In this document: positions 1,990-53,653 of the stretch, one piece after another
Layout of the letters: every line of letters begins with the position of its first letter
How positions within the stretch are numbered: the stretch's first letter is position 1
Origin: Shewanella waksmanii ATCC BAA-643
GTDB taxonomy: Bacteria; Pseudomonadota; Gammaproteobacteria; Enterobacterales; Shewanellaceae
Assembly (NCBI RefSeq): GCF_000518805.1
Contig: NZ_JAEH01000007.1
Coordinates: 62,001 to 126,000 of the forward strand
Reading direction: 5' to 3'
Length of the DNA stretch: 64,000 bases
Translations under genes and position numbers: made by a program
Notes under the pieces: model-generated
The model's database searches: none
What the model saw: the letters and a program-made list of their open reading frames with translations, nothing else
Told to the model about the DNA's origin: nothing

Positions 1990-3168
1990 ATGAGCAACGC
2001 AACAAGCAGCACAGAAACCGTGCATCGCGTGAGTTTTTTAGACAAGGATTCGATGAACATTCCTATTCTAAAAATTCTTCAAGCTGATGGCACGACATAT
2101 GAAAAGGCCGTGTTACCGGTCATTGATCAGGCGTTGGCCGAAAAGATTTATGACACTTGTGTCTTTACACGGGTGTTAGACGAGCGCATGTTAGGCGCGC
2201 AGCGTCAGGGGCGTATCAGCTTTTACATGACCTGTACCGGTGAAGAAGCATCGATTATTGGTAGCACGGCCGCGCTAGATGATGGCGATGTCATCTTAGC
2301 TCAGTACCGTGAACATGCAGCGATTCGTTATCGCGGCTTCACCACTGAGCAGTTTATGAATCAGCTGTTTAGTAATGAAAAAGATTTGGGTAAGGGCCGA
2401 CAAATGCCGATTCACTATGGCAGCGAAGCGCTTAATTACCAAACCATTTCTTCTCCTTTGGCGACACAAATCCCCCAAGCAACGGGTGTGGGCTACTCGC
2501 TAAAAATGTTGGGTAAGCGCAATCTGGCTATCTGTTATTTCGGTGAAGGTGCTGCATCTGAAGGTGATTTTCATGCCGGGCTAAATATGGCGGCAGTGCT
2601 TAATTCTCCCACTATCTTCTTTTGTCGTAACAATGGCTACGCAATCTCTACACCTACTGAAGAGCAGTTTGTTGGTAATGGCATTGCAAGCCGCGGTGTG
2701 GGTTACGGGATGCACACAATCCGCGTTGATGGCAATGACATGCTAGCGGTGTTAGCTGCAACGCAACAGGCCAGAGCCTACGCGATAGAGAATAACGCAC
2801 CCGTATTAATTGAGGCGATGACTTACCGTCTTGGTGCTCACTCTTCATCAGATGACCCATCGGGTTATCGCTCTAAAGAGGAAGAAGAGAAGTGGCAAAT
2901 GCATGATCCTGTCAAACGCTTTAAGTTGTGGATGATGAATAAAGGCTGGCTAACTGAAGAGCAAGATAATCAGTTGTATGATAAGTATCGTCAAGAAGTC
3001 TTAGCTGAGTTGAAAGTAGCTGAAAAGCTGCCACTGCCGCATGTGGATACCTTAATACAAGATGTCTACGATGAACCTACGCCAAGGCTAAAAGCCCAAC
3101 TTGAGTCATTAAAACAGCATGTGAAGAAATATCCAGAGTCTTATCCAAATAGCGCAGGGAGAGTGTAG
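1990..3168 (+). CDS. bkdA1: Branched-chain 2-oxoacid dehydrogenase E1 alpha subunit
   Basis: This 392-aa thiamine-diphosphate enzyme subunit starts the oxidative decarboxylation of the 2-oxo acids of valine, leucine and isoleucine. The thiamine-binding segment is visible as [17 protein letters not shown] followed by [10 protein letters not shown]. The phosphorylation-loop-like segment [17 protein letters not shown] is typical of E1 alpha. It forms an operon with bkdA2, two bases downstream, and bkdB. The ATG at 1990 is the first start with the conserved N-terminus; its ribosome site is weak (AAGAGA about 9 bp upstream). Length and order match other bacterial bkd operons. Specificity for branched-chain acids rather than pyruvate is inferred from family resemblance. 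Confidence 0.93.
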
Positions 3169-3170
3169 TC

Positions 3171-4148
3171 GTGGCTAAAATTAATATGTTGCAAGCCATC
3201 AATGATGCTTTGTCGATTGCGATGGAAACAGACGATAAGGCCATGCTATTTGGTGAAGATGTCGGTCACTTTGGTGGGGTTTTTAGAGCGACTTCGGGAT
3301 TACAGGAAAAGTTTGGTAAACAGCGGTGCTTTAACTCGCCATTAACCGAGCAAGGCATTGCTGGTTTTGCCAATGGTCTAGCATCAAATGGTATGACGGC
3401 GATTGCTGAGATCCAGTTTGCAGATTACATCTTTCCGGCCATCGATCAGATAGTCAACGAAACCGCAAAGTTCCGTTACCGCAGTGGTAATGAATTCAAT
3501 GTTGGTGGCGTTACCTTCCGTACGCCATATGGCGGTGGCATCGCCGGCGGACACTATCATTCTCAGTCTCCAGAAGCCTATTTTACCCAAACTGCAGGGC
3601 TTAAAGTGGTTGTACCGCGTAATGCTTATCAAGCAAAAGGATTATTACTTGCCTCTATTCGCGATAAAAACCCGGTGATTTTCTTTGAGCCTAAACGTAT
3701 ATACCGCGCCAACGTCGGCGAAGTGCCAGATGAAGCTTATGAGATAGAACTGGGCAAAGCTGAAGTGGTAACACAAGGCTCAGATATCACCTTGCTAAGT
3801 TGGGGGGCACAAATGGAAATCATTGAAGACGCCGCCAAAATGGCTGCGAAGAAGGGCATTTCGTGCGAAGTGATAGATCTGCGTACACTGGCACCTTGGG
3901 ATGTTGAAACCGTGGCTAACTCTGTTCGTAAAACAGGGCGTCTACTGATAAACCACGAAGCGCCACTGACTGGTGGCTTTGCCGGTGAAATTGCTGCGAC
4001 AATTCAAGAAGAGTGCTTTTTGCACTTAGAATCACCGATTGCACGTGTATGTGGGCTCGACACTCCTTACCCGTTAGTGCATGAAAAAGAATACATGCCA
4101 GACGCCTTAAAGACGTTTGAAGCGATTAAAGCATCGGTTAAATTTTAG
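3171..4148 (+). CDS. bkdA2: Branched-chain 2-oxoacid dehydrogenase E1 beta subunit
   Basis: This 325-aa transketolase-like beta subunit pairs with BkdA1 to form the alpha2-beta2 E1 component. The N-terminal pyrimidine-binding domain begins [14 protein letters not shown] and contains [15 protein letters not shown] and the Glu-containing [14 protein letters not shown]; the C-terminal transketolase domain includes [14 protein letters not shown] and [13 protein letters not shown]. The start is GTG at 3171, two bases after the bkdA1 stop, consistent with translational coupling. bkdB follows closely at 4159. Confidence 0.94.
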
Positions 4149-4158
4149 GAGCAAAACT

Positions 4159-5760
4159 GTGATTAAAGAATTTATTTTGCCCGATATCGGTGAAGGTGTC
4201 GTTGAGTGCGAACTGGTAGAATGGCTAGTATCTGAAGGCGATACTGTGGTTGAAGACCAACCTATTGCCGATGTGATGACAGATAAAGCTTTAGTGCAAA
4301 TTCCAGCACCTCACGCTGGTGTTATCAAAAAACTTCATTACAAAAAAGGTGAGATTGCCATCGTGCATGAGCCTTTATATAGCGTTGATGTGGGCGCTAG
4401 CGCTGAGGTTGAACAAGTTGAAACATCAAGTGCTCCGGTAGAAGCGGCAGTTGAGCAAGTTATTGATGAAAAACCTTCAATTCAAAGTGCCCAACAAATT
4501 GAAGAGTTTTTGTTGCCCGATATCGGTGAAGGCATAGTAGAGTGTGAGCTAGTAGAGTGGTTGGTTGCTGAAGGTGATTATGTCGTTGAAGATCAGCCGA
4601 TTGCTGATGTAATGACCGATAAGGCTTTAGTGCAAATTCCTGCTATTAAAAATGGTCGAGTGGCTAAACTGCATTATCGTAAAGGGCAGTTAGCTAAAGT
4701 TCATCAGCCATTATTTGCCATTGAGGTTGCGATTGAAGTTGCAGGTGAAACAGCGGCTGTTGACCCAGTGAATGCGCAAAGCGCCGAGCAACCATCGGCA
4801 GGCCAAGTCGAGACAAGCAGCAATAACAATGTGGCTCAAGGAAAAGCATTGGCCAGTCCAGCTGTACGCCGTTTAGCGCGTAGTTATGATATTAATATCG
4901 CAGAAATCCCTGGCAGCGGTAAAAATGGCAGAGTCTACAAAGATGATGTTGAACGTTATCGTGGTCAATTAGTAAAAGCGACTACAGCGCAAAGCTCGCC
5001 GCAAACGCAAGCAAGCCAGAGTGCGATCAGTAGTCAAACTGTGGCGAGTGGTGCAGGGGATCGTGTCGAGCCGATTAAGGGCGTCAAAGCGGTGATGGCT
5101 AAGATGATGACCGAGTCGGTTTCAACGATTCCACACTTTACTTATTGTGAAGAGCTGGATTTAACCGAGCTTTGTGCACTAAGAGAGCAGATGAAAGTGA
5201 AATATTCGTCTGATGATCTTAAGTTGACCATGATGCCATTTTTCATGAAAGCCATGTCTTTGTCACTTAAGCTATACCCGATCATCAATAGTCGAGTGAA
5301 TCAAGACTGTACCGAGCTGACTTATCTAGCGGATCACAATATTGGTATGGCCGTGGACTCTAAGGTTGGTTTGTTGGTACCGAATGTGAAAAATGTGCAG
5401 GCCAAGTCAATTTTGGAAGTCGCTGCTGATATTACCCGCTTAACTAACGATGCGCGTAGTGGCCGAGTGGCGCCAGCGGATCTTAAAGGCGGCAGTATCT
5501 CTATTTCTAACATTGGTGCGTTAGGTGGTACGGTAGCAACGCCGATTATTAATAAACCGGAAGTGGCAATCGTAGCTTTAGGTCAGTTGCAAACTCTACC
5601 GCGCTTTAACGATGAAGGTGAAGTAGAAGCTCGTAAGATTATGCAGGTGAGTTGGTCTGGTGATCACCGAGTCATTGATGGTGGCACCATTGCGCGATTC
5701 TGTAATCAATGGAAAGCTTACCTTGAGCATCCTCAAGAAATGTTATTAGCTATGCAATAA
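4159..5760 (+). CDS. bkdB: Branched-chain 2-oxoacid dehydrogenase E2 (dihydrolipoyl acyltransferase)
   Basis: This is the E2 core of the Bkd complex, 533 aa, which moves the acyl group from E1 to CoA on a swinging lipoyl arm. It has two tandem lipoyl domains (about 2-77 and 115-190), each with DKALVQIPA and lipoyl lysines at 43 and 155. A peripheral-subunit-binding domain follows near 225-262 (SPAVRRLARSYDINIAEIPG). The catalytic acyltransferase domain ends with SWSGDHRVIDGG, where His503 and Asp507 are catalytic. I chose the GTG at 4159 because GGAGC lies just before it and the protein then starts VIKEFILPDIGEG; the ATG at 4117 lies inside bkdA2 and adds an unrelated leader. No E3 gene follows, so lipoamide dehydrogenase is presumably shared. 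Confidence 0.94.
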   Translation: MIKEFILPDIGEGVVECELVEWLVSEGDTVVEDQPIADVMTDKALVQIPAPHAGVIKKLHYKKGEIAIVHEPLYSVDVGASAEVEQVETSSAPVEAAVEQVIDEKPSIQSAQQIEEFLLPDIGEGIVECELVEWLVAEGDYVVEDQPIADVMTDKALVQIPAIKNGRVAKLHYRKGQLAKVHQPLFAIEVAIEVAGETAAVDPVNAQSAEQPSAGQVETSSNNNVAQGKALASPAVRRLARSYDINIAEIPGSGKNGRVYKDDVERYRGQLVKATTAQSSPQTQASQSAISSQTVASGAGDRVEPIKGVKAVMAKMMTESVSTIPHFTYCEELDLTELCALREQMKVKYSSDDLKLTMMPFFMKAMSLSLKLYPIINSRVNQDCTELTYLADHNIGMAVDSKVGLLVPNVKNVQAKSILEVAADITRLTNDARSGRVAPADLKGGSISISNIGALGGTVATPIINKPEVAIVALGQLQTLPRFNDEGEVEARKIMQVSWSGDHRVIDGGTIARFCNQWKAYLEHPQEMLLAMQ

Positions 5761-15784: not shown

Positions 15785-17563
15785 ATGAAAAAAGCGCTAA
15801 TCGCACTGACCATTGCCAGTGCTCTGACAGGTCTCACTGCATGTACTTCACAACAGTCTTCATCGACCACGCAGCCTACCGCTGCTGAGCAAGTCGCTGT
15901 CGAAGGCTTTGCCGCCTTTTCTGAGCAATTTATTGAAGGGTTATGGCAACAGTCGCCAACTTGGGCTTTATACAGTGGCTATCATAAATATGATGGTATT
16001 TTACAGATTCCCAATGATACGGCGCGCAGTGCCTACTTAGCCTTTGTTACGGCAGAACTCAATAAGCTACAGTCGTTTGATAAATCGCAACTATCGCCAA
16101 ACGAACTGATCGACTATCGCTTGATTGAAAATCTGTTGCAACGTGGTGCTTGGGAGATTGAAGTCTTTAAATCTTGGCAATGGAACCCCAGCAGCTACAA
16201 CGTGTCGGGCGGTTTTGCACAAATCATTAATAAAGACTTTGCTCCACTAGATGAAAGGTTAAGATCCTTCCTAGCAAGAATGGAAAACGTACCGGCTTAC
16301 TACCTTGCTGCTCAAGCGAATATCAGTAATCCTACACTTGAACACACCCAGCTAGCTGTTATGCAAAATAAAGGCGCATTCAGCGTTTTTTCTGATGAAT
16401 TACTTGAAAAAGTGTCAAGATCAGGCTTAACAGATCAAGAAAAACAGTTGTTTAAACAAAGGTTCGAGCAATCAACCACGGCAATCAACCAGCATATAAG
16501 CTGGTTAGAAGATCTCGAATCTAAGTTAGTTAAATCTGGCGCTAAGAGTTTTAGAATTGGTGAAGAGTTGTATGAGCAAAAATTTGCCTTTGATATTCAA
16601 GCGGGAATGAGTGGCAAAGCGCTTTATGAAAAAGCCATGGATGACAAAGCTCGTGTGCAAGGTGAAATGGCGAAAATTACCGATAAGCTATGGAGCAAGT
16701 ATTTTGATACACCTCAGCCGAAGCAGAGTAATGTCGCTATAAAACAATTGATTGATCACTTAAGTGCCAAACATGTGCAACGTGATAATTTTGTTGCTGA
16801 GGTTCGAGCGCAAATCCCTGAGTTAGTCAAATTCGTCAATGACAAAGAACTCATTACCCTGGATCCCTCTAAGCCGCTGGTTGTAAGAGAAACACCGGAA
16901 TACATGCGCGGTTTTGCGGGTGCTTCTATCAGTGCACCTGGCCCTTATGAGAAAAGTAGCAACACTTATTATAATGTGACGCCGCTGGATGACATGAGTG
17001 ATGAACAAGCTGAAAGCTATCTTCGCGAATATAACCACTGGATACTGCAAGTGCTAAACATCCATGAAGCCATTCCAGGCCACTATACCCAACTGGTTTA
17101 CAGTAACGAATCTCCCAGCATGATAAAAAGCCTGTTTGGTAACGGTGCTATGGTTGAAGGCTGGGCGGTGTATACCGAGCGTATGATGCTGGAAGAGGGC
17201 TACGGCAACTTTGAGCCAGAAATGTGGTTGATGTACTACAAATGGAATTTACGTGTTATTGCCAATACCATTTTAGATTACAGTATCCAAGTTAAAGGCA
17301 TGACCGAAGCGGAGGCGATTGAGCTTATGACTCAAGAAGCGTTCCAGCAATAGGCGGAAGCTGAAGGTAAATGGCGCCGGGCAACACTGAGCCAAGTACA
17401 GTTAACTAGCTACTATTCTGGTTACCGTGAGATCTATGACTTTAGAGAAGAGCTCAAAGGTATGCAGGGTGAGGCTTTTAACTTAAAAGCGTTCCACGAG
17501 GAGTTCTTAAGTTATGGCAGTGCACCGGTAAAATATGTAAGAGAGCTGATGTTAACCCAATAA
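15785..17563 (+). pseudogene. DUF885 peptidase-like lipoprotein, interrupted by in-frame TAG
   Basis: The frame encodes a DUF885-family protein with a lipoprotein signal (MKKALIALTIASALTGLTAC, lipobox LTAC), so it would sit in the envelope. The metalloprotease-like motif HEAIPGHY near residue 435 and VEGWAVYTERMMLEEGYG are intact. Codon 523 (17351-17353) is TAG, yet the same frame continues for 69 sense codons with clear family sequence (AEAEGKWRRATLSQVQL, YYSGYREIYDFREELKG) to TAA at 17561. A single substitution, for example of GAG or CAG, explains this. The product would lack its last 70 residues. Start chosen at ATG 15785 (GGATAGGATA before it) rather than the upstream ATG at 15740. It may be a real nonsense mutation or a sequencing error. 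Confidence 0.88.
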
Positions 17564-17582
17564 CGAAACTTAGACTCTGTTT

Positions 17583-17610
17583 AAAAAGCCAGCACAAATG
17601 CTGGCTTTTT
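17583..17610 (+). terminator. Terminator after the DUF885 gene
   Basis: AAAAAGCCAGCA (17583-17594) pairs perfectly with TGCTGGCTTTTT (17599-17610) around CAAA. It lies 20 bp after the TAA at 17561, supporting 17563 as the original end of the DUF885 gene. Confidence 0.93.
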
Positions 17611-17695
17611 GTTTATTTGCTTAGAGTAAATGTTACTAAGATCGCAAATTTAGCAAAAACTACTAGCACCTGTCACACCTTTGATGTAACCTTAA

Positions 17696-51487: not shown

Positions 51488-52801
51488 TTGCTGGATAAGC
51501 TTGGTGGAATAGCATTATCACCTGACGCTTTACGCTGGTTACACACCCCAGAAAAGCTTAAGTCAGAGTTGATCTCGCAAATCAATGCAGCAAAGCATTC
51601 TATTTATATTGCGGCACTTTATTTAGAAGATGATGAAGCGGGTAGAGAAGTTTTAAAGGCCCTCATCGATGCCAAAAACCGTAATCCGCAGTTAGACGTA
51701 AAAGTACTGGTAGATTTTCATCGTGCTAGACGCGGCCTGATCGGTCATAAAGGCGATAGTGGCAACTACTTAATGTACCGTAAAGCGAATGCAGAGACCG
51801 AGAACCCTATCGATATTTTAGGTGTACCGGTTAAGTCTCGCGAATTTATGGGCGTGTTGCACTTAAAAGGTTTTGTGATTGATGACACAGTGATCTATAG
51901 CGGTGCCAGCATTAACGACATCTATCTGCATCAAAATGAAAAATATCGTTTTGATCGTTATCATGTCATTGAATCGGCTGAGCTTGCTAGAAGTATGCGG
52001 CAGATGATCAAAACCTATTTGGTTGACGATATTGCCGTTTGCTCTTTATCACAAGATAAAGACTGTGAAACGTTACCAGAGAAAAATGATGTTCGCAGCT
52101 TAAAGCTACGTTTAGGTAAAGCGCAATACAAATTCGAATCAACCAGTATTGGTAACCGTGTCACGCCCATTGTGGGTCTTGGGCGTAAGAAGAACAAACT
52201 CAATAAGTTAGTGGTTGATATGGTATCGCAATCACGTCAACACTTATTTATTTGCACTCCTTATTTTAATCCGCCTTACATTTTAGCAAGAGCACTCGCT
52301 AAGCATTTACGAGACGGTAAGCGCATTGATATTGTGGTAGGCGATAAAACCTCGAATGACTTTTATATTCCACCAGAAGAAGAGTTTTCTACTATTGGTG
52401 CTTTGCCTTATATGTATGAGCAATCGTTACGTAAATTTGCTAAAAGGCAGCAATGGGCAATTGAAAGTGGCCAGCTTAATATACATTTGTGGAAACATGG
52501 CCGAAATAGCTATCATTTAAAAGGGATTAGTGCTGACAGCAAGCAGCATCTAATCACCGGGAGTAATCTCAACCCTCGCGCGTGGGCACTAGATTTAGAA
52601 AACGGCCTATTATTGCAAGATGAATGCGGTGCCTGGAAAGACAGTTTTGAGCAAGAGCAGCAACATATACTCGAGCATACTGAACGTTTGTACCATTATA
52701 GTCAGATAGAGACGTTAACCAACTATCCGGCACCAGTTCGTAAAATCATGACCCGAATCCGGCGTTTAAAAGCCGATTTCTTGCTCCGGAGGATCCTATA
52801 G
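51488..52801 (+). CDS. pssA: Phosphatidylserine synthase PssA
   Basis: This 437-aa phospholipase-D-fold enzyme makes phosphatidylserine from CDP-diacylglycerol and serine, leading to phosphatidylethanolamine. The two catalytic HxK motifs are LHLKGFVIDDTVIYSGASI and YHLKGISADSKQHLITGSN. The length matches E. coli PssA. The start is TTG at 51488 with a strong AAAGGAGG seven bases upstream. It probably forms an operon with the DUF1904 gene. Confidence 0.94.
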   Translation: MLDKLGGIALSPDALRWLHTPEKLKSELISQINAAKHSIYIAALYLEDDEAGREVLKALIDAKNRNPQLDVKVLVDFHRARRGLIGHKGDSGNYLMYRKANAETENPIDILGVPVKSREFMGVLHLKGFVIDDTVIYSGASINDIYLHQNEKYRFDRYHVIESAELARSMRQMIKTYLVDDIAVCSLSQDKDCETLPEKNDVRSLKLRLGKAQYKFESTSIGNRVTPIVGLGRKKNKLNKLVVDMVSQSRQHLFICTPYFNPPYILARALAKHLRDGKRIDIVVGDKTSNDFYIPPEEEFSTIGALPYMYEQSLRKFAKRQQWAIESGQLNIHLWKHGRNSYHLKGISADSKQHLITGSNLNPRAWALDLENGLLLQDECGAWKDSFEQEQQHILEHTERLYHYSQIETLTNYPAPVRKIMTRIRRLKADFLLRRIL

Positions 52802-52813
52802 TTGCAATTTAAT

Positions 52814-52843
52814 AAGGTGGTAAAGGGAATCCTTTGCCACCTT
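52814..52843 (+). terminator. Hairpin after pssA
   Basis: AAGGTGGTAAAGG (52814-52826) pairs with CCTTTGCCACCTT (52831-52843), with one G-T pair and a GAAT loop. It lacks a T tract. It lies before the chosen start of the DTW gene, which supports that start. Confidence 0.75.
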
Positions 52844-52909
52844 ATCGATTCAAGCATCGTATACTTAACAACACACCGCCATCTAACGTTCTTATCAATC
52901 GGAATCTCT

Positions 52910-53653
52910 ATGTCGCTGCCGCAACACGCTGTGCATCGTTTGTACCAATATCGAAAAGCCATATCTAGTCGCCCTTACATGGCGCGGGGTAAGAACTTAG
53001 TGCGTTGTGAGCTTTGTCTATTGGCGCAAAAGTTCTGTACCTGTCACGCTAGAAAGGTGCTTGATTCAAAGGTCAGTTTTTTACTGATTATGTACGACGA
53101 TGAAGTGCTTAAACCCAGTAACTCAGGCCGCTTAATCGCAGACTTAATCGAAGATACCCATGCCTATATTTGGTCCCGAACCCATGTGAATCGTAAAGTG
53201 CTGCAATTGCTTAGCGATCCGCAATACCAACCCTATCTGATATTTCCCAGTGAATATGCCGAGAAAAGCCAACAGGTCGTAACTGAAATTCAGCCCCATG
53301 CTGATTCAGATAAAAGGCCGCTGTTTGTTTTACTTGATGGAAGTTGGCGCGAGGCAATTAAAATGTTTCGTAAATCGCCTTATCTTCATCAGCTTCCTAT
53401 GCTTTCATTTACGCCAGAATCCGTGGCAACCTATGGGTTACGTAAAGGCAGTCGCGACTTTCAGCTCGGGACCGCTGAAGTGGCCAGCTTAGCACTGGGG
53501 GCAGCAGGAGAGATTAACAATCTACAGGCCCTTAGTGCTTGGTTTGACTTATTTATTCAATCGTCTCTATTTAGCCGCAGCCGTAAGAGTACTCACGACA
53601 CATCGATATTAGATGAGTTAGAGCAGCAATTTGTCGTTAGCGCCCAGCTGTAG
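52910..53653 (+). CDS. DTW-domain protein, likely tRNA-uridine aminocarboxypropyltransferase (TapT/TuaA-like)
   Basis: This 247-aa protein has an N-terminal zinc cluster (CELCLLAQKFCTCHARK) and a C-terminal DTW domain with MYDDEVLKPSNSGRL, FVLLDGSWREAIKMFRKSPYL and YGLRKGSRDFQLGTAEVASLAL. E. coli YfiP (TapT), encoded near pssA there too, makes acp3U47 in tRNA from SAM. I start at ATG 52910 because the open extension to 52802 crosses the hairpin after pssA and is not family-like. The assignment is by family and linkage. Confidence 0.85.
   Translation: MSLPQHAVHRLYQYRKAISSRPYMARGKNLVRCELCLLAQKFCTCHARKVLDSKVSFLLIMYDDEVLKPSNSGRLIADLIEDTHAYIWSRTHVNRKVLQLLSDPQYQPYLIFPSEYAEKSQQVVTEIQPHADSDKRPLFVLLDGSWREAIKMFRKSPYLHQLPMLSFTPESVATYGLRKGSRDFQLGTAEVASLALGAAGEINNLQALSAWFDLFIQSSLFSRSRKSTHDTSILDELEQQFVVSAQL

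What the first reader, a model, noticed from the sequence alone, without database searches (positions are those of the whole stretch)
17345..17563. DUF885 lipoprotein broken by a single in-frame amber codon
The frame is intact on both sides of TAG 17351-17353. The 69 codons after it encode recognisable family sequence and lead directly to TAA and a terminator. This is a very recent nonsense mutation, programmed read-through, or a sequencing error. Loss of the last 70 residues may inactivate the enzyme while the catalytic motif is kept.
Basis: seen in the sequence. Interest (0 to 1): 0.6.

Follow-up and report, generated by a model that had tools for sequence, protein, structure and literature searches.

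The report
Recently stop-interrupted Shewanella DUF885 lipoprotein gene
In this Shewanella genome the gene for a metallopeptidase-like lipoprotein has an early stop signal that removes its last 70 residues; nearly all related species searched have it intact, so this looks like an ordinary, very recent loss-of-function mutation (or a sequencing error), not a new decoding mechanism.

Summary
A 592-codon DUF885 lipoprotein gene (15785-17563) is cut at codon 523 by TAG 17351-17353. The 69 codons after it are real family sequence: PF05960 runs 1-532/532 across the stop and the solved homologue 3U24 aligns through it. Of 128 other genomes of the genus, 121 hold an open full-length copy; 0 of 108 distinct orthologous sequences has a stop at the site. 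The tail shows no decay, so the stop is very young or artefactual. TAG is an ordinary terminator here: 10 other ORFs of 45 in the window end in it, RF1 is intact, and no CUA-anticodon tRNA was found, though the tRNA set is incomplete. Programmed read-through is therefore unlikely. The lost part is helical and holds 12 residues shared with three DUF885 paralogues, so the 522-residue product is probably non-functional. Four other genomes show broken or remnant copies, so the gene seems dispensable. Mutation versus sequencing error cannot be settled without reads or a second isolate. Ordinary; low interest.

The parts
15785..17350 (+). Open part of the DUF885 lipoprotein gene, 522 codons: signal with C20, HEAIPGH at residues 427-433 and the glutamate E458 of VEGWAVYTE
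   Evidence: H427 E428 P431 G432 H433 E458 invariant among 25 aligned sequences; HE..PGH also in the 3 paralogues of the genome
17351..17353 (+). In-frame amber codon TAG at codon 523; 0 of 108 distinct orthologous sequences has a stop there (Q 45, R 39, T 13, K 5, I 3, E 2, L 1)
17354..17560 (+). 69 codons of conserved C-terminal family sequence after the stop; 12 residues identical in 4 orthologues and 3 paralogues (R532 Q539 Y543 G546 I550 R554 G562 F565 F570 H571 G578 P581)
   Evidence: helices in the model
17561..17563 (+). TAA, the ordinary end of the gene; orthologous frames end 0 to 8 codons beyond their matched stretch
17582..17611 (+). Terminator-like hairpin (13 pairs) followed by a T-rich stretch

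Best explanation
A very recent single nonsense mutation in a conserved but dispensable chromosomal gene of a Shewanella species. The gene encodes an exported lipoprotein of family DUF885 with a zinc-metallopeptidase-like fold. Translation ends at the amber codon and gives a 522-residue product that keeps the HEAIPGH motif but lacks the last four helices; it most likely misfolds or is inactive (inferred). Loss is probably tolerated because three intact DUF885 paralogues remain (inferred). Shown: the stop, the intact relatives, the undecayed tail, TAG as a normal terminator. Inferred: that the base is real in the strain, that the product is inactive, that the paralogues compensate.
For: The frame is intact apart from one codon. 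Relatives have sense codons at the site: Q 45, R 39, T 13, K 5, I 3, E 2, L 1 of 108; the parsimony set of the sister group is glutamine codons in both gene trees, and at least 46 codon changes at the site mean that the residue itself is not critical. The tail is undecayed: 0 of 47 strongly conserved columns changed; tail/body nonsynonymous ratio 0.595 against a median of 0.656, with 83 of 108 relatives at or above it. A rough rule-of-three bound is under 0.028 nonsynonymous changes per site since any loss of constraint, against a terminal branch of 0.43 nucleotide or 0.22 amino-acid changes per site. The gene is broken elsewhere in the genus in other ways: G034 (two frames and a TAA), G094 (two TGA, a gap and a frame change), G072 (two frames), G037 (remnant of about 90 residues); G059 has no DNA match. 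Three intact paralogues lie in the same genome. 12 of 69 tail residues are identical in 4 orthologues and 3 paralogues, 27 of 465 in the body.
Against: No reads and no second isolate of the species were available, so a wrong base call is not excluded. An undecayed tail would equally be seen if the tail were still translated. Typical intact relatives also have 0 deviations at the conserved tail columns (median 0), so that test cannot date the stop finely. The node that holds the sister group is weakly supported (0.576 and 0.386). The broken copies in G072 and G094 were judged from the listing only and could themselves be assembly errors. Inactivity of the truncated protein was not measured.
Confidence: 0.72

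Rival explanations
1. Sequencing or assembly error: the strain has a sense codon and an intact gene, and the draft assembly carries one wrong base.
For: Draft in 82 contigs; perfectly preserved reading frame and undecayed tail; no other strain seen with the stop.
Against: No sign of an error-rich assembly: 0 of 33 TonB-receptor and 0 of 28 chemoreceptor family matches in this genome contain a stop (these cover only the matched spans). Of three window ORFs with a same-frame continuation of 45 codons or more, this is the only one whose continuation belongs to the same family match.
Confidence: 0.2
2. Programmed or tolerated read-through: a fraction of ribosomes reads UAG, giving a low level of full-length lipoprotein.
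For: Tail as conserved as in relatives; in-frame stops with dN/dS below 1 are reported as widespread in bacteria by Belinky et al. 2021 (PMC7918605; abstract, first part of the results and first part of the discussion read).
Against: The stop is in 0 of 108 orthologous sequences. TAG ends 11 of 45 mechanical window ORFs, the cut gene included, and PssA reaches the last profile position exactly at its TAG. RF1 intact. No CUA anticodon among 27 tRNA types found (incomplete set) and no tRNA at 15 pattern hits. Pyrrolysyl-tRNA synthetase profile only below cut-off, and it also rings in 13 of 14 control genomes. The same paper says that such stops mostly persist for a short time and assumes that the vast majority are not functional recoding.
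Confidence: 0.05
3. Functional truncation: the 522-residue form is a stable, useful protein.
For: Zinc-site motif and most of the domain are retained.
Against: The tail holds residues shared with distant paralogues and four helices of the domain; 0 of 108 orthologous sequences ends at this place.
Confidence: 0.03

Closest known systems
PDB 3U24, putative lipoprotein of Shewanella oneidensis (DUF885)
   Same: Aligns over residues 21-590 and through the stop; fold match Z 40.2, rmsd 2.3 over 536 residues, 71% identity
   Different: Not interrupted; a sense codon (R) stands at the position of the amber codon
In-frame stops in otherwise conserved bacterial genes (Belinky et al. 2021, PMC7918605)
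   Same: Single in-frame stop with the sequence beyond it undecayed; short-lived by inference
   Different: That study focused on stops at the same position in two or more species; here the stop is seen in one genome
M32 carboxypeptidases and M2/M3 peptidases (PDB 3HQ2, 1K9X, ACE, neurolysin; family names M2, M3, M32 partly recalled)
   Same: Similar helical fold by structure comparison, Z about 8-11
   Different: 7-12% identity, rmsd about 5-8; for mostly helical models Z under about 13 may be only a common arrangement (note); Foldseek gives E above 0.1

Membership tests
DUF885 (PF05960) | Pfam profile above its gathering score | tested here: met
   364.0 bits read through, 279.5 truncated, cut-off 32.4
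DUF885 (PF05960) | Metal-site motif HE..PGH with a downstream glutamate | tested here: met
   H427 E428 P431 G432 H433 E458 invariant in 25 aligned sequences and identical in 3 paralogues; that such residues bind zinc in this family is a prediction in PMC12572635 (one passage read), not tested here
DUF885 (PF05960) | Complete C-terminal region in the translated product | tested here: not met
   Stop at codon 523; profile positions 466-532 lie beyond it and are not translated by the standard code
Recent nonsense pseudogene | Disabling stop where relatives have a sense codon | tested here: met
   0 of 108 orthologous sequences has a stop at the site
Recent nonsense pseudogene | Stop really present in the strain | not testable with these tools
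   No reads and no second isolate held
Recent nonsense pseudogene | Product inactive | not testable with these tools
   Needs an assay
Programmed stop-codon read-through gene | Stop conserved among relatives, with a constrained tail | tested here: not met
   Tail conserved, but the stop is in 0 of 108 orthologous sequences
Amber-recoding genome (suppressor tRNA or pyrrolysine) | CUA-anticodon tRNA or PylS | tested here: inconclusive
   None found, but the recovered tRNA set lacks Gln, Glu, Ala and Ile and only 150 of 258 candidates were scored
Amber-recoding genome (suppressor tRNA or pyrrolysine) | TAG no longer used as an ordinary terminator | tested here: not met
   11 of 45 mechanical window ORFs end in TAG, the cut gene included; PssA reaches its last profile position exactly at its TAG

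The most novel reading that the evidence does not exclude
The amber codon is a maintained switch: a small share of ribosomes reads it and yields a low, possibly condition-dependent dose of full-length lipoprotein, which would explain the undecayed tail.
Probability: 0.04. Interest if true: 0.45.

Novelty: new member of a known kind. Interest (0 to 1): 0.12.

Why it matters
Mostly as a clean annotation case: the gene should be marked as interrupted and not read as a shorter peptidase. It also suggests that this conserved Shewanella gene has been broken or lost in several species in different ways, so its lipoprotein is dispensable.

Tried and rejected
Second amber-split gene in the window: the scan for same-frame continuations flagged 51488-53653 (437 codons, TAG, 283 open codons) and 1990-3168 (58 codons after TAG) besides the finding. 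Both rejected: the first is PssA reaching profile position 451/451 at its TAG, followed by a separate DTW-domain gene in the same frame; the 58 codons after the E1 dehydrogenase gene match no family in Pfam or NCBIfam.

Re-initiation after the stop: among ATG, GTG and TTG the tail has in frame only ATG at 17462 and 17549, both inside the conserved region, so a separate small gene is unlikely.

Suppressor tRNA: RF00005 gave 61 matches in the own genome, with only 150 of 258 candidates scored; aragorn on loci L125-L165 gave 27 tRNA types, none reading a stop codon; one more tRNA, Ser, lies in the window. A CUA-anticodon-to-T-arm pattern gave 15 hits against 45 for the reversed control, and aragorn found no tRNA at any of the 15 loci.

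NCBIfam has no family for either form of the protein. Papers: a full-text search for DUF885 gave 13 papers, 12 listed, none with the term in title or abstract, of which I read one passage (PMC12572635); '3U24' with 'Shewanella' gave none; three broader searches were seen as listings with the starts of abstracts only, apart from PMC7918605.

dS was saturated (pS 0.79-0.96 for body or tail against the eight nearest relatives, except where noted), so no classical dN/dS for the tail could be given; nonsynonymous proportions were used instead, each sequence against a random 30 of the relatives. Support around the window's sequence in the gene trees is weak at the nearest node (0.576 and 0.386; 0.99 and 0.94 one node further out), so the immediate sister is not certain. 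The structure model has low confidence at residues 383-442, which include the HE..PGH motif, so the active site was not compared in three dimensions. A first script for the codons at the site left 22 of 119 rows blank because of loci on the other strand; it was replaced, and no count is taken from it.

Rows dropped: the orthologue filter (identity 58% or more, start by residue 35, end at 585 or later) kept 136 loci, 109 distinct sequences with the window's own; by my count 139 loci went in, and I take the three dropped to be the paralogues L001-L003, which the script did not print. Of 371 related loci in genome contigs only the best 80 were returned. Of the genus genomes only the best-scoring matches were given as loci (30 each), so the 108 sequences lean towards near relatives.

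Full report
What is there. The window lies in an unnamed draft genome (4.97 Mb, 82 contigs) whose nearest relatives by this gene in named records are Shewanella (best 77-78% protein identity). The gene runs from ATG 15785 to TAA 17563: 592 codons before the TAA, of which codon 523 (17351-17353) is TAG. It is the only stop inside the matched frame. The product begins with a lipoprotein signal, with C20 among the columns 90% or more conserved, and matches PF05960 over the whole profile when read through (364.0 bits, 1-532/532) and over 1-465/532 when truncated (279.5 bits). A terminator-like hairpin lies at 17582-17611 (such sites as a class are not in excess over shuffles).

The tail is real family sequence. 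phmmer aligns the S. oneidensis protein 3U24 with residues 21-590, with no gap near the stop. In the genus search with the protein (129 genomes, the window's own included), 126 have a match at E 1e-60 or better. Among the 128 others, 121 have a match from residue 22 or earlier to 589 or later in a frame without stops; G113 is cut by a contig edge; G034 (two frames, one TAA), G072 (two frames) and G094 (two TGA, a gap and a frame change) are broken; G037 keeps only about residues 501-590; G059 has no match at this threshold and none at DNA level; G120 is 52% complete and has none. These counts are read off the listing. G072 and G094 were not looked at further and could be assembly errors.

The site. 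Parsimony on two gene trees needs at least 46 codon changes there; the set of the sister group is glutamine codons in both trees, deeper sets mix glutamine and threonine codons. So the column is fast-evolving and the residue is not critical; what is unusual is termination.

Age of the stop. The tail is more conserved than the body in the family (mean modal frequency 0.86 against 0.79). The window's copy has 0 deviations at 47 strongly conserved tail columns and 1 at 224 in the body; its tail/body ratio of nonsynonymous difference is 0.595, against a median of 0.656, and 83 of 108 relatives are at or above it. Relatives also have a median of 0 deviations in the tail, so this says 'no decay' and no more. 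A rule-of-three bound gives under 0.028 nonsynonymous changes per site since constraint was lost, taking about 2.25 nonsynonymous sites per codon, an assumed figure, while the terminal branch is 0.43 (nucleotide) or 0.22 (amino acid) per site. The stop is therefore young compared with the lineage, or artefactual, or the tail is still translated.

Is UAG read here? Of 45 non-overlapping mechanical ORFs of 120 codons or more in the window, 11 end in TAG, the cut gene among them; PssA at 51488-52801 reaches the last profile position exactly at its TAG. RF1 is intact. No stop-reading anticodon was found among 27 tRNA types, but that set is incomplete (no Gln, Glu, Ala or Ile; only 150 of 258 candidates scored). 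A pattern for CUA tRNAs gave no tRNA. The pyrrolysyl-tRNA synthetase profile finds only a sub-threshold match; it also rings in 13 of 14 control genomes, over the cut-off in only one. No stop was seen within 33 TonB-receptor and 28 chemoreceptor family matches of this genome. Reassignment of TAG as such is excluded by the window's genes; suppression or gene-specific read-through is not, but has no positive evidence.

Consequence. The AlphaFold2 model of the read-through frame (mean pLDDT 77.2) has helices at 523-534, 542-564, 567-575 and 582-591, pLDDT about 71-94 by block from residue 521 on; the motif region 383-442 is poorly modelled. The model matches 3U24 (Z 40.2), 3IUK (26.1) and 3O0Y (24.3) over ranges that reach residues 590-592, then M32, M2 and M3-type peptidases at Z about 8-11, which for a helical model is only suggestive. 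In an alignment of 4 orthologues (the window's included) with the three intact DUF885 paralogues of the same genome, 12 of 69 tail residues and 27 of 465 body residues (58-522) are identical. In related peptidases C-terminal residues help bind substrate (recalled, not tested). The 522-residue product keeps HEAIPGH but very probably is not a working enzyme.

Context. Nine named Shewanella loci of the 80 were compared, and two of other genera. In six of the nine (L035, L038, L041, L044, L047, L059) the gene stands between a recQ-like helicase gene and a response-regulator gene on the same strand, as in the window; in three of these six (L035, L038, L041) the M14-like peptidase gene follows too. 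(The names recQ, response regulator and M14 are my reading of the sequences, not from a family search.) In L050, L053 and L056 this order was not found: L050 and L056 have only a 26-27% identical helicase match on the other strand, and L050 is cut short. In L084 and L098 (Pseudoalteromonas, Alteromonas) none of the neighbours was found. In G034 the neighbouring response regulator is also split over two frames.

Verdict. An ordinary, very recent nonsense allele of a dispensable gene, with sequencing error as the main rival. Belinky et al. 2021 (PMC7918605; abstract, first part of the results section and first part of the discussion read) describe in-frame stops as widespread and mostly short-lived in bacteria.

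Noticed in passing
window 51488-53653: A PssA-like gene ends in TAG and the same frame stays open for 283 codons through a DTW-domain gene; by family matches these are two genes, and the DTW gene probably starts further downstream than the mechanical ORF, perhaps at the in-frame ATG 52910.
   Followed up: yes
L166 (G034), about 2074-4642: In this relative both the DUF885 gene and the neighbouring response-regulator gene match in two different reading frames, as if the small region were decaying together.
   Followed up: partly
L167 (G037), about 4300-4563: Only a C-terminal remnant of about 90 codons of the DUF885 gene is left, beside a response-regulator gene and an M14-like peptidase gene that match over nearly their whole length.
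   Followed up: partly
G026:C144:23431-23958: A second, partial copy (residues 415-590, 90% identical to the window's) besides a full-length gene; contig length suggests this genome is the metagenome-assembled Shewanella sp. DT_112, so strain mixture is possible.
   Followed up: no
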